DNA from: Blautia sp.
GTDB lineage: Bacteria > Bacillota > Clostridia > Lachnospirales > Lachnospiraceae
Length of the DNA stretch: 64,000 nt
Assembly (NCBI GenBank): GCA_023663685.1
Contig: JAMPHB010000006.1
Location: 1-64,000, forward strand
Direction: 5' to 3'
Position numbers and translations under genes: made by a program. Shown here one piece after another: positions 10,487 to 43,248 of the stretch. Under the pieces are notes generated by a model. The model did no database searches. It was not told where the DNA came from and worked only from the letters and a program-made list of their open reading frames with translations. Each line of letters starts with the position of its first letter. Position 1 is the stretch's first letter.

Positions 10487-11293
10487 TTAAATGGAATGGC
10501 CGCCACCGCCGCCGCTGTGGCCGCCGCCACCACCACCGCCGCCACCGCCACCGTGGCCGCCGCTGCCGGAGCTCTGCGGGCTGTAGGTCTTGGTCTGGTG
10601 TATGAAGCGGACATTCGTGTTTGCAACGTGAAAGCCCGTGTAGGTACCGGAGAGCACCTGCTGGACGTCCGGCTTTTTCGCGCGGGACAGACACATGACG
10701 ATGATGTAGTTGATTAGAAGTGCCAGAATAATGGCCAGCAGTGCGCTGCATATGTACTTCATGGGTTCTGCAATCCGCCTGCCGTTTAACAGGGCAAGTA
10801 CCTGCTCCATCGTCTTGTAGCTGCAGGTATAGTAGTCGTAATCCCGGGAGCTGGTCGCATAGATATAGGTGTTGTCCGTAATCGAGTACGCCTTGGAATC
10901 CGTGATGGTTTTTCTGGCGTCCCCGTCGCTGTAGAGAAAAATCTCGTTCAGGTGACGGTCAATGACAAACAGCGTACCGCTCGTGTGGGAGCCAAAGCAG
11001 TTCTCGAAATAGGTTCCGGCAAAATCCTCCGTATTGTAGCCGTCGTGGTCGGTCGTGGTGACAACCGCCACGTTGCAGTATTCGGTGATCTCCTCCATCA
11101 GCGTCTGCAGGGCCCGGGTCTCGGAATCCGAAAAATAACCGGCCGAATCGTCGATGAGGAGCGTGTAGCCCGTGCTGTCGTTTGTGTCCTGCACGATGGC
11201 GTGGGCAGGAGTGACGGACAGCAGCAGGACGAGAAGAGCCGCCGCAAGATGGAATATGTTTTTGAAAGAAATATGTTTTTTACGCACGGTCAT
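10487..11293 (-). CDS. TPM-domain protein with membrane anchor and Gly/His-rich tail
   Basis: A signal peptide (about 15-32, ending in PAHA) leads into a TPM domain (roughly 40-165, with DDSAGYFSDSE near its start), then a membrane helix (about 200-225) and a tail of runs of glycine with serine and histidine. TPM (TLP18.3/Psb32/MOLO-1) domains are found in exported proteins of uncertain function; some act as phosphatases or in photosystem repair. The Gly/His tail may bind metal or simply be flexible; that is inference. The 5' end overlaps the zinc-ribbon gene by 14 bp. The ATG at 11293 is only two bases from GGAGG, so the in-frame GTG at 11287, spaced eight bases, may be the real start. Confidence 0.75.
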   Translation of the reverse strand: MTVRKKHISFKNIFHLAAALLVLLLSVTPAHAIVQDTNDSTGYTLLIDDSAGYFSDSETRALQTLMEEITEYCNVAVVTTTDHDGYNTEDFAGTYFENCFGSHTSGTLFVIDRHLNEIFLYSDGDARKTITDSKAYSITDNTYIYATSSRDYDYYTCSYKTMEQVLALLNGRRIAEPMKYICSALLAIILALLINYIIVMCLSRAKKPDVQQVLSGTYTGFHVANTNVRFIHQTKTYSPQSSGSGGHGGGGGGGGGGGHSGGGGGHSI

Positions 11294-23793: not shown

Positions 23794-24151
23794 TACGCGC
23801 GCACGTCAGGCTTTACCGCAGGCGAATTGCAGGAGCCGGGCATTGCCATGGGAGATGGCGCGCACGGAAGGTTTTGCGGCGGGCGGAAGCGCGTGCAAAA
23901 AGGGCTCCACGCTATCGGTTCCGTCAAATGGATTTTCGGATATTCTTAGGAAGGTTTCTTCTTTTGACGCGACCGCCCGCAATTCGCCGTCGTGGCTCAG
24001 TGCGGGCTTTACGGGACGTCCATGTCCCGCAATCGCTGACTTTGTACAGAATATGCGAAACTCCAATTTTCCTCCACAAAGATAGCTGTGGCAGCCTTTT
24101 GCACACGCTGCCGCCCACCGCAAAGCCTTCCGTGCGCGCCGTGCGATGGGT
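23794..24151. other. Non-coding 358-bp intergenic region
   Basis: No credible gene is seen between the exonuclease (plus) and the TPR gene (minus): open frames here lack ribosome binding sites and resemble no protein family. Nearly the whole stretch is taken up by the long inverted repeat listed separately. Confidence 0.6.
23857..24140. repeat. Long near-palindromic element (MITE-like or structured RNA)
   Basis: A left arm at 23857-23946 is matched by the reverse complement of 24048-24140. The outer 46 bp agree at all but about five positions (GGCGCGCACGGAAGG at each outer end); the match weakens and then returns strongly near the inner ends (TTTCGNATATTCT). The roughly 100-bp centre contains two more hairpins: GCCCGCA 23975-23981 with TGCGGGC 24001-24007, and CGGGAC 24012-24017 with GTCCCG 24024-24029. 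It fits a small non-autonomous mobile element or a highly folded RNA at a convergent gene junction. No target-site duplication was seen. Confidence 0.65.
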
Positions 24152-40523: not shown

Positions 40524-40556
40524 ATGCTCCGCGGGTTTGTCTGCGGAGCATTTTAT
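40524..40556 (+). terminator. Rho-independent terminator after rpsI
   Basis: Perfect 9-bp stem ATGCTCCGC (40524-40532) with GCGGAGCAT (40543-40551), a ten-base loop and a TTTTAT tail. Confidence 0.85.
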
Positions 40557-40560
40557 CGTA

Positions 40561-40589
40561 TTAACATTTGAGAAGATTTGGGCTATAAT
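40561..40589 (+). promoter_or_regulatory. Sigma-A promoter upstream of the toxin-antitoxin locus
   Basis: TTAACA, 17 bases, perfect TATAAT, just after the rpsI terminator. It would transcribe a roughly 80-base AT-rich stretch with small hairpins (for example CAGTTC/GAACTG near 40630-40645) and on into the antitoxin. Confidence 0.6.
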
Positions 40590-40687
40590 GGTATTTGTAA
40601 GCATATAGAGGATGTTAAATGCTGATACCAGTTCCCATAAGAACTGACAAGATGTGATAAGACTTGTATTTTTGTGTAAAATGCCAG

Positions 40688-40716
40688 TGGATATTTATTT
40701 GAAAAATGAGTACAAT
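40688..40716 (+). promoter_or_regulatory. Possible proximal promoter of the antitoxin RNA
   Basis: TGGATA, 17 bases, TACAAT, placing the RNA start near 40723, directly before the first antitoxin repeat. The -35 box is weak. Confidence 0.4.
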
Positions 40717-40720
40717 GTAA

Positions 40721-40810
40721 TAAAGAAGGTCTCCATTAACCTTTGGTAGCCAATCCATAAAGAGATGAACATTAACGAGTGGGAAGTTGGTAAAACTTCC
40801 CACATTTTTT
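40721..40810 (+). ncRNA. Type III antitoxin RNA (ToxI-like) with two degenerate 36-nt repeats
   Basis: Two units are aligned by TAAAGA at 40721 and 40758 and CATTAAC at 40734 and 40770, giving a period of 36-37 bases, the size of ToxI-type repeats that fold as pseudoknots and bind the toxin. Outside these blocks the two copies differ widely (about 16 of 36 positions agree). The array runs straight into the terminator at 40779. Placement before the ToxN-like gene, as in known type III systems, is the main support. Confidence 0.55.
40779..40810 (+). terminator. Terminator between antitoxin RNA and toxin gene
   Basis: Perfect 10-bp stem GTGGGAAGTT (40779-40788) with AACTTCCCAC (40794-40803), a five-base loop and ATTTTTT. 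In type III systems such a leaky terminator keeps antitoxin RNA in excess over toxin mRNA. Confidence 0.85.
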
Positions 40811-40828
40811 AGGAAAAGGGGCAGCCGG

Positions 40829-41407
40829 ATGTTTGATTTTGATGGATATATGAAGTTTATTAACATAAATCAAAATTATATTAAGGAGCTGCACATAGTA
40901 TGCCCGGAAGTGTATTACAAATCTACCGGTTATGATAATAAACCGTACATAGGTATTTTAATAAACGAGAAAGAACGTTCATATGTAATTCCGCTGTCTT
41001 CTGCGAAAGAAAAACATAAAAATTGGAAGAATGTCAATCAGGGCTGTTATCTGGTGTATGAATATGCGTTAAAAACAAAAATGAGGGATGCAGATATTTG
41101 GGTGCAGGATACAGAAGGAAACATAGTTAAGCATATAATGTCGGTGATAGATATTAAAAAAATGATTCCGGTTAAGTCAGGTGTCTATAAAGAGATAAAT
41201 ATGAATAGACAAAATTCTGATACGCCGGAAATTGCAAAATATAAGGATTTATTAAATAAAGAGTATTCTTTTTGCCTGAAAATTCGAAGAGATATCATAA
41301 AGAAAGCAAATAAATTGTACGATAACCAGATGATTACTGGAAAAGTTAAAAAGTTTTGCTGTGACTTTAAAATATTGGAGCAAGTTTGTGATACATATAA
41401 AATTTAA
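40829..41407 (+). CDS. Type III toxin-antitoxin endoribonuclease toxin, ToxN/AbiQ family
   Basis: 192 residues. The core matches ToxN/AbiQ: KPYIGILINEKERSYVIPLSSAKEKHKNWKN (38-68; ToxN has a similar YIGIVL...APLSSPKEKH stretch), VIDIKKMIPVKSGVY (106-120), and the C-terminal helical part TPEIAKYKDLLNKEYSFCLKIRRDIIKKANKLYDNQ. These toxins cut cellular and antitoxin RNA and can abort phage infection. The start at 40829 has AAGGGG upstream; the ATG at 40850 (MKFINI) is an alternative, closer to the usual ToxN N-terminus. The gene is far more AT-rich than its neighbours, which points to transfer. The upstream repeat RNA and terminator complete the expected locus. Confidence 0.85.
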   Translation: MFDFDGYMKFININQNYIKELHIVCPEVYYKSTGYDNKPYIGILINEKERSYVIPLSSAKEKHKNWKNVNQGCYLVYEYALKTKMRDADIWVQDTEGNIVKHIMSVIDIKKMIPVKSGVYKEINMNRQNSDTPEIAKYKDLLNKEYSFCLKIRRDIIKKANKLYDNQMITGKVKKFCCDFKILEQVCDTYKI

Positions 41408-41476
41408 CACGCAGAACGAATAAAGCAGGCATTCTGCCATAGGAGGCGTGTACAGATTTTTTTCTTGTACAGATAC

Positions 41477-41527
41477 AAAAATTTCGTTGTTTTTCGCAAC
41501 TAAAACGAAAATTTTTCATTTTTTTAT
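41477..41527 (+). terminator. Terminator after the toxin gene
   Basis: AAAAATTTCGTT (41477-41488) pairs with AACGAAAATTTTT (41504-41516), with an inner GTTG/CAAC and a following CATTTTTTTAT tract. Confidence 0.65.
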
Positions 41528-41610: not shown

Positions 41611-43248
41611 TTGCATTCCGTAAGAACAAGGATATTAGCACTGGCACTGGGCTGCGTCTTACTTTCCAATTTAATAGTAATATTTGTGGGTATTATCGGG
41701 GTATCGGGCACGGTCAATGATGATTCGAGCCAGGTGATTCAGGAGCTTGCGCAGCACAAGGCGCAGGAAGTAGACAAGCAGCTTCTTTTAGTCGAGCAGT
41801 CGGTTCAGACATTACATGCATATATTGCGCAGGAGGTCAGCAGGAATCCTTCCTTTTGGCAGAATACGGATGAGCTTGCGCAGCATCTGGACACAGTGCG
41901 CAGTATGGCGGGGCTTGCCATACAGAGCACGACGCAGGCGAAAAGCGTGTACTATCACCTTGCGCCCCAGATCGGTATGGCGGACTCCGGTGTTTACATT
42001 GTCCAGATGGGAGATGAGGTGTATTCAGATTTCCCTCTCTCCGATGCGAACGCCTACGGGGAAAGCGGAAGGCTTGAGGACGCTCTTGAGTCGGGCAAGG
42101 GCGCATGGCTTTTGCCCTATCGGAATGAGGCCGCGGGCAAGGATGTTATCTCCTATGTGATTCCGGTCATTCACGGCGCACAGCAGATTGGTGTTGTCGG
42201 GATGGACATTGATCTTAGCGGTATTCGGAGTATGCTCACCGTGGTAAAGGGATATACCGGCAGCTATGCGGTTTTGATGGACGCGGCGGGAGATTTTGTC
42301 TATCACCCGGATTACCCCAGCGGGGTTGCCGCGGCGAATTTCTCAGATTCCTATGACAAGATCAGCGATACGATGGCGAAGGCGCGCCAGACGGAGAAGG
42401 TCTGCGCTTACCGCTGGGAGGGCGAGCAGAGAAAGATTACATTCCGCAAGCTGGAAAACGGCATGTCGGTGGGAGTCTCGGTACCGCTCACGCAGGTGCG
42501 CAAGCCTGCCCGGGTGTTTGCCCTTGTTGCGCTCATCATTGTTGCGGTAGTGATTCTGGTGGCATATATTCTCACGGAGAAGCTGTCCGCATATATTGTG
42601 AAGCCTCTGCAGGAGCTTACGGAGGTGGCCGAAAAGCTTGCGGGCGGTGATCTGGATGTGAATATCCGCTGTCAGACGAACCACGACGAGCTGGAAGTGC
42701 TGGCGGAGAGCCTGCAAAAGACGGCCGACGAGCTGAAAAAGCAGGTGAGCTCGGTCAATGAATTTGCGCGGACGGATTCCCTGACGACGGTTCATAATAA
42801 GTCCGCCTATCAGGAGCAGATTAAGGCTCTCACGGAGGATATCGAGATGGATCGCGCCCAGTTTTCTGTGGCCGTGCTGGACGTGAACTCCTTAAAGCAT
42901 ATGAATGATACTTATGGACACGAGGCAGGCGATCTGTGGATTACGGGAGCGGCGACAGCGATGGAGCGCGCCTTTGGGCGGTCGCGGGTGTACCGCATCG
43001 GCGGAGACGAGTTTGCGGTGATATTCGAGCCGAAGGGGCGCAAGCATTATGACCGCATGATGACGGAGTTTTACAAGGAGATAGACCGTTTCAACAACCG
43101 GGACGACAAGATATACAAGGAGAAGCTTCAGGTGGCCTGCGGGCTCGCGGATTACGATAAGAGCATTGACCGTCAGTATGCGGATGTCTTCCGCAGGGCG
43201 GACGATGAGATGTACAAAAACAAAAAGTTCTTAAAAGGACTGGCATAG
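41611..43248 (+). CDS. Membrane sensor diguanylate cyclase (Cache-HAMP-GGDEF)
   Basis: 545 residues with a TTG start at 41611 after GGAGGTGAGGGG. Membrane helix 1 (about 9-30), an extracellular double-Cache-like sensor (about 40-300, with VISYVIPVIHGAQQIGVVGMDIDLS), membrane helix 2 (about 308-332), a HAMP linker (YIVKPLQELTEVAEKLAGGDLDV) and a GGDEF domain (about 388-545). The active-site GGDEF is intact at 464-468 and MNDTYGHEAGD supplies metal contacts. The RxxD inhibitory site expected just upstream (RSRVYRI here) is missing, so feedback by c-di-GMP is not expected. It probably makes c-di-GMP in response to an external ligand. The DUF6273 gene follows 15 bases later. Confidence 0.93.
   Translation: MHSVRTRILALALGCVLLSNLIVIFVGIIGVSGTVNDDSSQVIQELAQHKAQEVDKQLLLVEQSVQTLHAYIAQEVSRNPSFWQNTDELAQHLDTVRSMAGLAIQSTTQAKSVYYHLAPQIGMADSGVYIVQMGDEVYSDFPLSDANAYGESGRLEDALESGKGAWLLPYRNEAAGKDVISYVIPVIHGAQQIGVVGMDIDLSGIRSMLTVVKGYTGSYAVLMDAAGDFVYHPDYPSGVAAANFSDSYDKISDTMAKARQTEKVCAYRWEGEQRKITFRKLENGMSVGVSVPLTQVRKPARVFALVALIIVAVVILVAYILTEKLSAYIVKPLQELTEVAEKLAGGDLDVNIRCQTNHDELEVLAESLQKTADELKKQVSSVNEFARTDSLTTVHNKSAYQEQIKALTEDIEMDRAQFSVAVLDVNSLKHMNDTYGHEAGDLWITGAATAMERAFGRSRVYRIGGDEFAVIFEPKGRKHYDRMMTEFYKEIDRFNNRDDKIYKEKLQVACGLADYDKSIDRQYADVFRRADDEMYKNKKFLKGLA

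What the first reader, a model, noticed from the sequence alone, without database searches (positions are those of the whole stretch)
40561..41527. Type III toxin-antitoxin locus with a highly degenerate, two-unit antitoxin RNA
Seen: a ToxN/AbiQ-like protein (YIGIL...VIPLSSAKEKHKNWKN; VIDIKKMIPV) preceded by a perfect 10-bp terminator and, before that, two units sharing TAAAGA and CATTAAC with a 36-37-base period. Known: type III antitoxins (ToxI, antiQ) are tandem repeats of about 36 nt ahead of a leaky terminator. Here the units agree at fewer than half of their positions, and the array runs into the terminator stem, so the antitoxin may work with one or two divergent pseudoknots. A second promoter at 40561 adds about 120 extra bases of structured RNA. 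AT-rich composition suggests transfer next to rpsI. This may be a divergent subfamily.
Basis: partly seen in the sequence, partly recalled or inferred. Interest (0 to 1): 0.72.

Follow-up and report, generated by a model that had tools for sequence, protein, structure and literature searches.

The report
Toxin–antitoxin with a single-copy RNA antidote
This looks like a bacterial toxin–antidote pair of a known phage-defence type (ToxIN), but its RNA antidote, normally a row of repeated copies, is here one larger copy carrying an extra hairpin, which suggests that the repeats thought to define this type are not always needed.

Summary
The toxin is real: window 40829-41407 (192 aa) is a full-length ToxN (Pfam PF13958, 136.6 bits, cut-off 25; five catalytic-pocket positions kept). 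A 10-bp terminator precedes it. In 13 of 20 loci of the toxin's clade the unit recurs head to tail with a step of 52 or 53 nt, 2 or 4 times. The window, L002 and L012-L016 (7 of 20) have one copy, and one exact-pattern match per whole assembly. The 23 distinct units share a near-invariant core (they were picked by that core) with the geometry of short ToxI RNAs, plus an inserted hairpin in the crossing loop that changes on both sides at all four counted pairs. On the toxin tree the hairpin-only loci form one clade, and single-unit loci sit in three separate places. Best reading: a working ToxIN system with a monomeric antitoxin; function untested. It is a new variant of a known kind that published repeat-based criteria would miss. 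In passing: the same unit in five phage records with no ToxN match (records may be fragments), and an array before a probable sugar-kinase gene in one bacterium.

The parts
40524..40551 (+). terminator-like hairpin after rpsI (context, not part of the system)
   Evidence: 12 pairs, 7 G-C, then T-rich tail
40561..40589 (+). promoter-like site TTAACA-17-TATAAT; outside the shared stretch, role doubtful
   Evidence: 11 of 12 matches; homology to relatives starts only at 40669
40669..41407 (+). stretch shared with close relatives (promoter, antitoxin unit, terminator, toxN)
   Evidence: blastn: the 40669 piece matches in 5 of 17 relatives (L002, L003, L004, L006, L010), where a leader separates it from the unit; other matching relatives start at 40719 or later
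40688..40716 (+). likely antitoxin promoter TGGATA-17-TACAAT; expected start about 40723, the first bases of the unit
   Evidence: 9 of 12 matches; similar sequence in L002-L007 and L010; 11 nt from -10 to the pseudoknot here; start site inferred
40725..40775 (+). antitoxin unit, single copy (51 nt as aligned; step 52 or 53 in relatives)
40727..40730 (+). pseudoknot stem 1, 5' strand (AGGT)
40731..40733 (+). loop 1 (CTC)
40734..40737 (+). pseudoknot stem 2, 5' strand (CATT)
40739..40742 (+). pseudoknot stem 1, 3' strand (ACCT)
40744..40757 (+). extra hairpin inserted in the crossing loop (TGG ... CCA in register with the alignment, 3 pairs in this copy; TTGG/CCAA is a local alternative by eye)
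   Evidence: all four counted pairs change on both sides across units
40764..40767 (+). pseudoknot stem 2, 3' strand (GATG)
40768..40775 (+). 3' tail AACATTAA, A-rich candidate for ToxN cutting (cut site inferred)
   Evidence: array junctions of relatives
40779..40803 (+). terminator hairpin between antitoxin and toxin
40829..41407 (+). toxN, 192 aa, ATG start; pocket residues Y35, K38, S57, S58, K60

Best explanation
A ToxIN-family type III toxin-antitoxin locus with a one-unit antitoxin. A promoter at 40688-40716 starts an RNA at or within a few bases of the unit. Most transcripts stop at the 40779-40803 terminator and give a roughly 85-nt RNA: one H-type pseudoknot with an extra hairpin in its crossing loop, plus the terminator hairpin. 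Some read through and make ToxN, an endoribonuclease. ToxN is held inactive by the unit, probably after a single cut in the A-rich tail AACAUUAA, since the 5' end is already set by transcription start. When the short-lived RNA runs down, for example when a phage shuts off transcription, free ToxN cuts RNA and stops growth. Shown here: protein family, pocket residues, one unit, the covarying hairpin, terminator-like hairpin, no further exact-pattern unit in the assembly. Inferred: start site, cut site, toxicity, neutralisation, phage defence.
For: Pfam ToxN_toxin 1.1e-39, 136.6 bits, full length; PADLOC AbiQ 88.8 bits; solved ToxN chains 7d8o, 4ato, 2xd0 at 1.6e-8 to 7.7e-7; Y29, K33, T52, S53, K55 of 2xd0 map to Y35, K38, S57, S58, K60. 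Units per locus: 1 in 7, 2 in 12, 4 in 1 of 20 loci. The exact pattern matches once in the window's genome and once in each of six single-unit relatives. Structure on 23 distinct units: 95.3% of cells paired against 29-51% when slid; hairpin pairs change on both sides at 4 of 4. The stem 1-loop-stem 2 geometry recurs upstream of other toxN genes with other stem-2 sequences: 19 of 27 loci, 46 hits; shuffles mean 2.0 hits, at most 6. Tree: hairpin-only clade 97/84. In print: one CptI repeat alone gave full protection (PMC4627078, passages).
Against: For other systems the review reports need of 2.5 ToxI-Pa and at least 1.8 antiQ repeats (PMC5086642), so one unit might not protect at natural dosage. 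In the phylum sample 0 of 14 loci with an intact toxin had one unit (read by eye), and the single units seen outside the clade sit beside broken toxins (L134, L170). L002, also single-unit, keeps a leader with 118 nt between -10 box and unit, so a leaderless start is not shared by all seven; by eye some two-unit loci start close too. Stem 2 never varies in the 23 units, and these were picked by a pattern that spans both stem-2 strands (one substitution allowed in each half), so its pairing rests on analogy with other loci. The nested energy model gives neither stem 1 nor the pseudoknot (it cannot draw pseudoknots). The genome is 81.8% complete in 31 contigs; a repeat merged in assembly cannot be excluded at this one locus. 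Diverged units would escape the exact pattern.
Confidence: 0.78

Rival explanations
1. One reading: two divergent 36-nt ToxI units ahead of the terminator.
For: TAAAGA and CATTAAC recur 37 and 36 apart; 34-36 nt is the length of the characterised ToxI and antiQ units (PMC5086642).
Against: Relatives repeat the whole stretch as a block with a step of 52 or 53 nt; both motif pairs fall inside one block; similarity at lag 36 is reached by 46 of 2000 shuffles; covariation fits one unit with a hairpin.
Confidence: 0.03
2. A decaying locus: the array shrank to one unit because the toxin is no longer toxic.
For: Single units outside the clade go with broken toxins (L134, L170); L010 lacks 36 residues over the catalytic pocket while keeping two units; L156 and L168 carry stops.
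Against: The window toxin is full length with all five pocket positions; L012-L016 are five separate records with intact toxins and one unit; the window's unit is unchanged from those of its kin.
Confidence: 0.12
3. Assembly collapse: the true locus has two or more units that the assembler merged.
For: The window and L002 are close kin of two-unit loci, and their unit is identical to the first unit of several of those, as expected from either a real deletion or a merge.
Against: Two 52-nt units fit within usual short reads (general knowledge); five separate L012-L016 records all show one unit; two- and four-unit loci were assembled in L003-L011.
Confidence: 0.1

Closest known systems
ToxIN / AbiQ family (type III toxin-antitoxin; ToxIN-Pa, ToxIN-Bt, ToxIN-Ec, AbiQ)
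   Same: ToxN protein family and pocket residues; promoter, RNA, terminator, toxin order; stem 1-loop 1-stem 2 geometry of the pseudoknot as found in other toxN loci
   Different: unit of about 52 nt instead of 34-36; hairpin inserted in the crossing loop; one unit instead of 2.8-5.5 (PMC5086642) or 3-5.6 (PMC8860590)
CptIN (Eubacterium rectale, 4RMO)
   Same: longer antitoxin unit (45 nt, two genetic repeats); a single unit is active in the published test (PMC4627078, passages)
   Different: the window toxin matched ToxN/AbiQ chains, and no CptN chain was among the four hits at E up to 10; no inserted hairpin is mentioned in the passages I read
Pseudo-ToxI of phage PhiTE (PMC3475682, passages)
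   Same: antitoxin-like RNA carried by a phage outside a toxIN locus
   Different: 1.5 repeats of the 36-nt type, expanded in escape phages; my phage copies are of the hairpin type, one each
HMP2_3156, HMP2_5421, HMP2_14852 (PMC8040213, passages)
   Same: candidate structured RNAs directly upstream of toxN in Clostridiales and Leptotrichia (106, 68 and 38 bp)
   Different: their sequences were not compared here; one of them could be this RNA

Membership tests
Type III toxin-antitoxin, ToxIN family | toxin of the ToxN protein family | tested here: met
Type III toxin-antitoxin, ToxIN family | catalytic pocket Y29, K33, T52, S53, K55 (ToxN-Pa numbering, PMC5086642) | tested here: met
   Y35, K38, S57 (T to S), S58, K60
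Type III toxin-antitoxin, ToxIN family | Rho-independent terminator between antitoxin and toxin | tested here: met
   (sequence only)
Type III toxin-antitoxin, ToxIN family | promoter before the antitoxin | tested here: inconclusive
   9 of 12 matches at 40688-40716; 4 such sites found in the stretch, 2.2 expected; similar sequence in 7 relatives
Type III toxin-antitoxin, ToxIN family | tandem array of repeats upstream of the toxin | tested here: not met
   one unit in the window (Tandem Repeats Finder finds nothing); met in 13 of 20 loci of the same clade, which is why I file the locus as a variant of the kind rather than a standard member
Type III toxin-antitoxin, ToxIN family | antitoxin unit is an H-type pseudoknot | tested here: inconclusive
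   hairpin and outer pair of stem 1 covary, stem 2 is invariant among units picked by that core, but the same geometry with other stem-2 sequences recurs in other toxN loci
Type III toxin-antitoxin, ToxIN family | toxin cuts and is neutralised by the RNA | not testable with these tools
   needs expression and rescue assays
CptIN family | toxin closer to CptN than to ToxN | tested here: not met
   one search lists four ToxN/AbiQ chains and no CptN chain at E up to 10; sequence comparison only

The most novel reading that the evidence does not exclude
Tandem repeats are dispensable in type III systems: this clade evolved a self-sufficient monomeric antitoxin, with an added hairpin in the pseudoknot and, in most single-unit loci, a 5' end made by transcription start rather than by toxin cutting; large phages and a bacterium carry solitary copies of the same RNA as decoys against such toxins.
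Probability: 0.3. Interest if true: 0.68.

Novelty: new variant of a known kind. Interest (0 to 1): 0.46.

Why it matters
Search criteria in print ask for a tandem array before the toxin (PMC5086642; PMC8860590). With default Tandem Repeats Finder settings only 6 of 20 loci of this clade show a 52-nt repeat, so such rules undercount. A single-unit system is also a clean test of whether repeat number sets toxin-antitoxin balance, and of whether cutting of the precursor is needed for neutralisation. Solitary copies in phages would be ready-made candidates for RNA-based counter-defence.

Tried and rejected
Two 36-nt units: rejected. Promoter at 40561 as part of the system: outside the shared stretch. 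Rfam: one match in the whole window, far away; near the locus only matches at E 0.12-9.1, all far below their gathering scores. Stem CTC/GAG instead of CATT/GATG: the L009 unit with CAC breaks it, and the CATT/GATG register matches other ToxI RNAs; not counted formally. A toxin insert going with the hairpin: dropped, since by eye L127, L132 and L133 have the insert without the hairpin. Empty site in the genus: the two same-genus genomes have no toxN above cut-off, no match to the downstream gene at E 1e-30 (a search without a positive control) and no matching intergenic stretch, so no clean empty site. Phage relatives of the protein: none confirmed in viral contigs; two hits in phage records. 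Relaxed phage pattern: 3 of its 7 hits (L171-L173) share one sequence context, inside a long open frame in L172 and L173 and not resolved in L171, and were dropped. The covariation count used all 23 units, phage units included; no run without them was made. In that count two measures are weak: pairs with a change on both sides 5 (31 of 500 shuffles reach it) and further pair types 11 (218 of 500). L131 is the same contig stretch as L008 and was left out of tallies. L010, L128 and G973 are not in the tree.

Searches were repeated in frame (11, 12, 93, 13, 14); 20 was replaced by reading sections, 22 by 28, 81 by 85 (another control), 82 by 87 (another pattern); 86 was not repeated; paper not held (a 2012 classification of type III systems, known to me from memory), so its table of repeat lengths was not seen. 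That single-unit or hairpin-bearing ToxI is not described rests on searches only, of a library that lacks most subscription papers; sequences of the HMP2 candidates were not seen. In one search one junk 30-base row was included by mistake; the alignment was rebuilt without it.

Full report
THE PROTEIN. Window 40829-41407 encodes 192 residues. It matches Pfam ToxN_toxin over the full profile at 1.1e-39 and 136.6 bits, cut-off 25, PADLOC AbiQ at 88.8 bits, and the solved ToxN chains 7d8o, 4ato and 2xd0 at 1.6e-8 to 7.7e-7, with AbiQ 4glk at 0.04. NCBIfam gave no match at 0.01. The five pocket residues named for ToxN-Pa (PMC5086642, section read) fall on Y35, K38, S57, S58 and K60; four of these are invariant, and S57 is S or T, in a 14-row alignment of the clade. 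It is a ToxN, with nothing in the sequence to suggest that it is dead.

THE ANTITOXIN IS ONE UNIT. The protein search in the species-genome collection confirmed 15 relatives at 51-80% identity. Upstream of each of the 15 lies the same block as at window 40725-40775. Where it repeats, the step is 52 or 53 nt. Counting the window, L002-L018, L128 and G973 gives 20 loci: one unit in 7 (window, L002, L012-L016), two in 12, four in 1. Units were counted with a core pattern that allows one substitution per half, so a strongly diverged unit would be missed; by eye the upstream stretches of the single-unit loci show no other. Two of the 20 toxins are not whole in the record: L010 lacks 36 residues, L128 is cut by the contig end. 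Tandem Repeats Finder at default settings reports a 52-nt repeat in 6 of the 20. The window's genome and the six single-unit relatives each contain exactly one match to the unit pattern in the whole assembly.

STRUCTURE. Twenty-three distinct units were aligned: 18 from toxN loci and 5 from phage records. They were picked by their core, so the near-invariance of the core is partly by choice; the hairpin was left free. A named structure with stem 1, stem 2 (pseudoknot) and an inserted hairpin pairs 95.3% of cells; sliding the partners by 1-3 columns leaves 29-51%. The covariation score is 0.293 against 0.101 in shuffles, 0 of 500 reaching it; pairs with a change on both sides are 5 (31 of 500 shuffles reach that), and further pair types are not above shuffles (218 of 500). 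The hairpin changes on both sides at 4 of 4 pairs, though 13 of 23 units, the window's among them, lack the outermost pair; stem 1 changes on both sides at one pair; stem 2 never varies, which says nothing by itself. For stem 2 I looked at toxN loci outside the clade. A geometry noted first by eye, stem 1 (3), loop (3), stem 2 (4), one base, stem 1', is found in 19 of 27 loci with 46 hits, against a shuffle mean of 2.0 hits and a maximum of 6 in 200 rounds, with many stem-2 sequences such as CCGC/GTGG, TCTC/GAGA, CTCC/GGAG, GCTC/GAGC and TTCC/GGAA. Eight loci gave none: L023, L028, L156, L157, L159, L160, L161, L164; by eye several of these are ToxI-like with slightly other stems or spacings. 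The window's GGT-CTC-CATT-A-ACC ... GATG fits the geometry. The crossing loop is 22 nt in the window and 18-23 nt in the other units by their lengths, mostly 6-14 nt outside the clade. L019 has the hairpin in units 1 and 3 of its array and not in unit 2, and by eye L156 and L161 also mix.

DESCENT. A maximum-likelihood toxin tree of 36 rows puts the loci in which every unit has the hairpin in one clade (17 rows, 97/84), with the mixed locus L019 as sister (18 rows, 99/96). Single-unit loci sit in three separate places: the window, L002 and L012-L016; the direction of change was not tested. The window's and L002's unit is identical to the first unit of two-unit kin such as L003, L004 and L007, which fits loss of one repeat by recombination. 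In a sample of 388 genomes of the phylum 16 have a PF13958 match at 1e-8. Of 17 matches other than the window, 14 have intact toxins and, by eye, 2-5 units each; 3 are broken or truncated (L156, L168, L170), and L170 has one unit. So in what I examined a single unit beside an intact toxin was seen only in this clade.

EXPRESSION. The stretch shared with the closest relatives begins at 40669 (5 of 17 relatives in the search show that piece). It contains TGGATA-17-TACAAT at 40688-40716. In L002-L007 and L010 52-120 nt separate the -10 box from the first unit; in the window it is 11 nt, in L012 11, in L013-L016 12. So six of the seven single-unit loci are close to their promoter, and L002 (118 nt) is not; by eye some two-unit loci are close as well, so the feature is not tied to copy number. 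If transcription starts about 7 nt after the -10 box, the window's RNA begins within a few bases of the pseudoknot, and its 5' end would need no cutting. This is inference; the promoter scan finds 4 sites in this stretch with 2.2 expected. The terminator is a perfect 10-bp stem.

HOW IT WORKS. By homology, ToxN is an endoribonuclease that cuts A-rich RNA and is held in a closed complex by pseudoknot units (PMC8860590, section 18 and passages). Repeats were judged necessary in some systems (2.5 for ToxI-Pa, at least 1.8 for antiQ; PMC5086642), but one CptI repeat gave full protection (PMC4627078, passages). The window's locus would be a natural case of the latter, in the ToxN family. Whether it protects at natural dosage is the open point.

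COPIES WITHOUT TOXIN. An exact scan of IMG/VR for the 14-base core found 98 stretches, of which 5 hold the whole unit with hairpin. A gapped scan of the collection finds just these five, and a control with complemented letters finds none. None of the five records (29-218 kb) matches PF13958, while four records known to hold toxN do in the same call; the records may be fragments. Rfam sees only tRNAs there. The longest open stretch over the unit is 57-120 aa in four, and 278 aa on the opposite strand in L103. In 392 genomes of the order 6 match the pattern; five of these have toxN beside it, and one, 99% complete, does not: G1000 carries one pattern unit and a second by eye, a terminator-like hairpin, then a gene that I take from memory of the family for a rhamnulokinase, and has no PF13958 match above cut-off (best 14.3 bits). 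PhiTE's pseudo-ToxI (PMC3475682, passages) is the known precedent for phage copies; a decoy role here is a guess.

VERDICT. A new variant of a known kind: ToxIN with a hairpin-bearing, single-unit antitoxin. The toxin and the unit are firm; the mechanism is inferred.

Noticed in passing
L074 983-1034 (-), L079 7938-7985 (-), L081 2277-2326, L103 10834-10882, L108 8383-8432: Complete hairpin-type ToxI units in phage records of 29-218 kb without any ToxN match; L108 near four tRNA genes. Flanks of L081 and L108 look like longer structured RNA by eye.
   Followed up: partly
L103 about 10889-10925: Right after the hairpin-type unit a second unit of the short ToxI kind (GGTGTTCCACTACC...) by eye, upstream of a phage gene.
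   Followed up: no
L141 about 1499-1630 (G1000:C1:2479517): Antitoxin array (one unit by pattern, a second by eye) with terminator-like hairpin before a probable sugar-kinase gene; the genome has no ToxN match above cut-off: an antitoxin apparently left alone.
   Followed up: partly
L010 3001-3468: ToxN lacks 36 residues in frame over the catalytic pocket while two antitoxin units are kept.
   Followed up: no
L134, L135, L136, L156, L168, L170: ToxN loci with an internal stop or missing parts: decay of the toxin is not rare.
   Followed up: no
window 23916-24079 (-): TwoAYGGAY RNA, 108.2 bits against gathering 43.
   Followed up: no
window 41611-43248: GGDEF diguanylate cyclase gene downstream of toxN; no match at 1e-30 in the two same-genus genomes, in a search without positive control.
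   Followed up: no
L128 5448-5990: An unannotated 'Bacteriophage sp.' record from human stool ends in a two-unit locus of this clade, close by eye to the one in G973: possible carriage on a mobile element.
   Followed up: no
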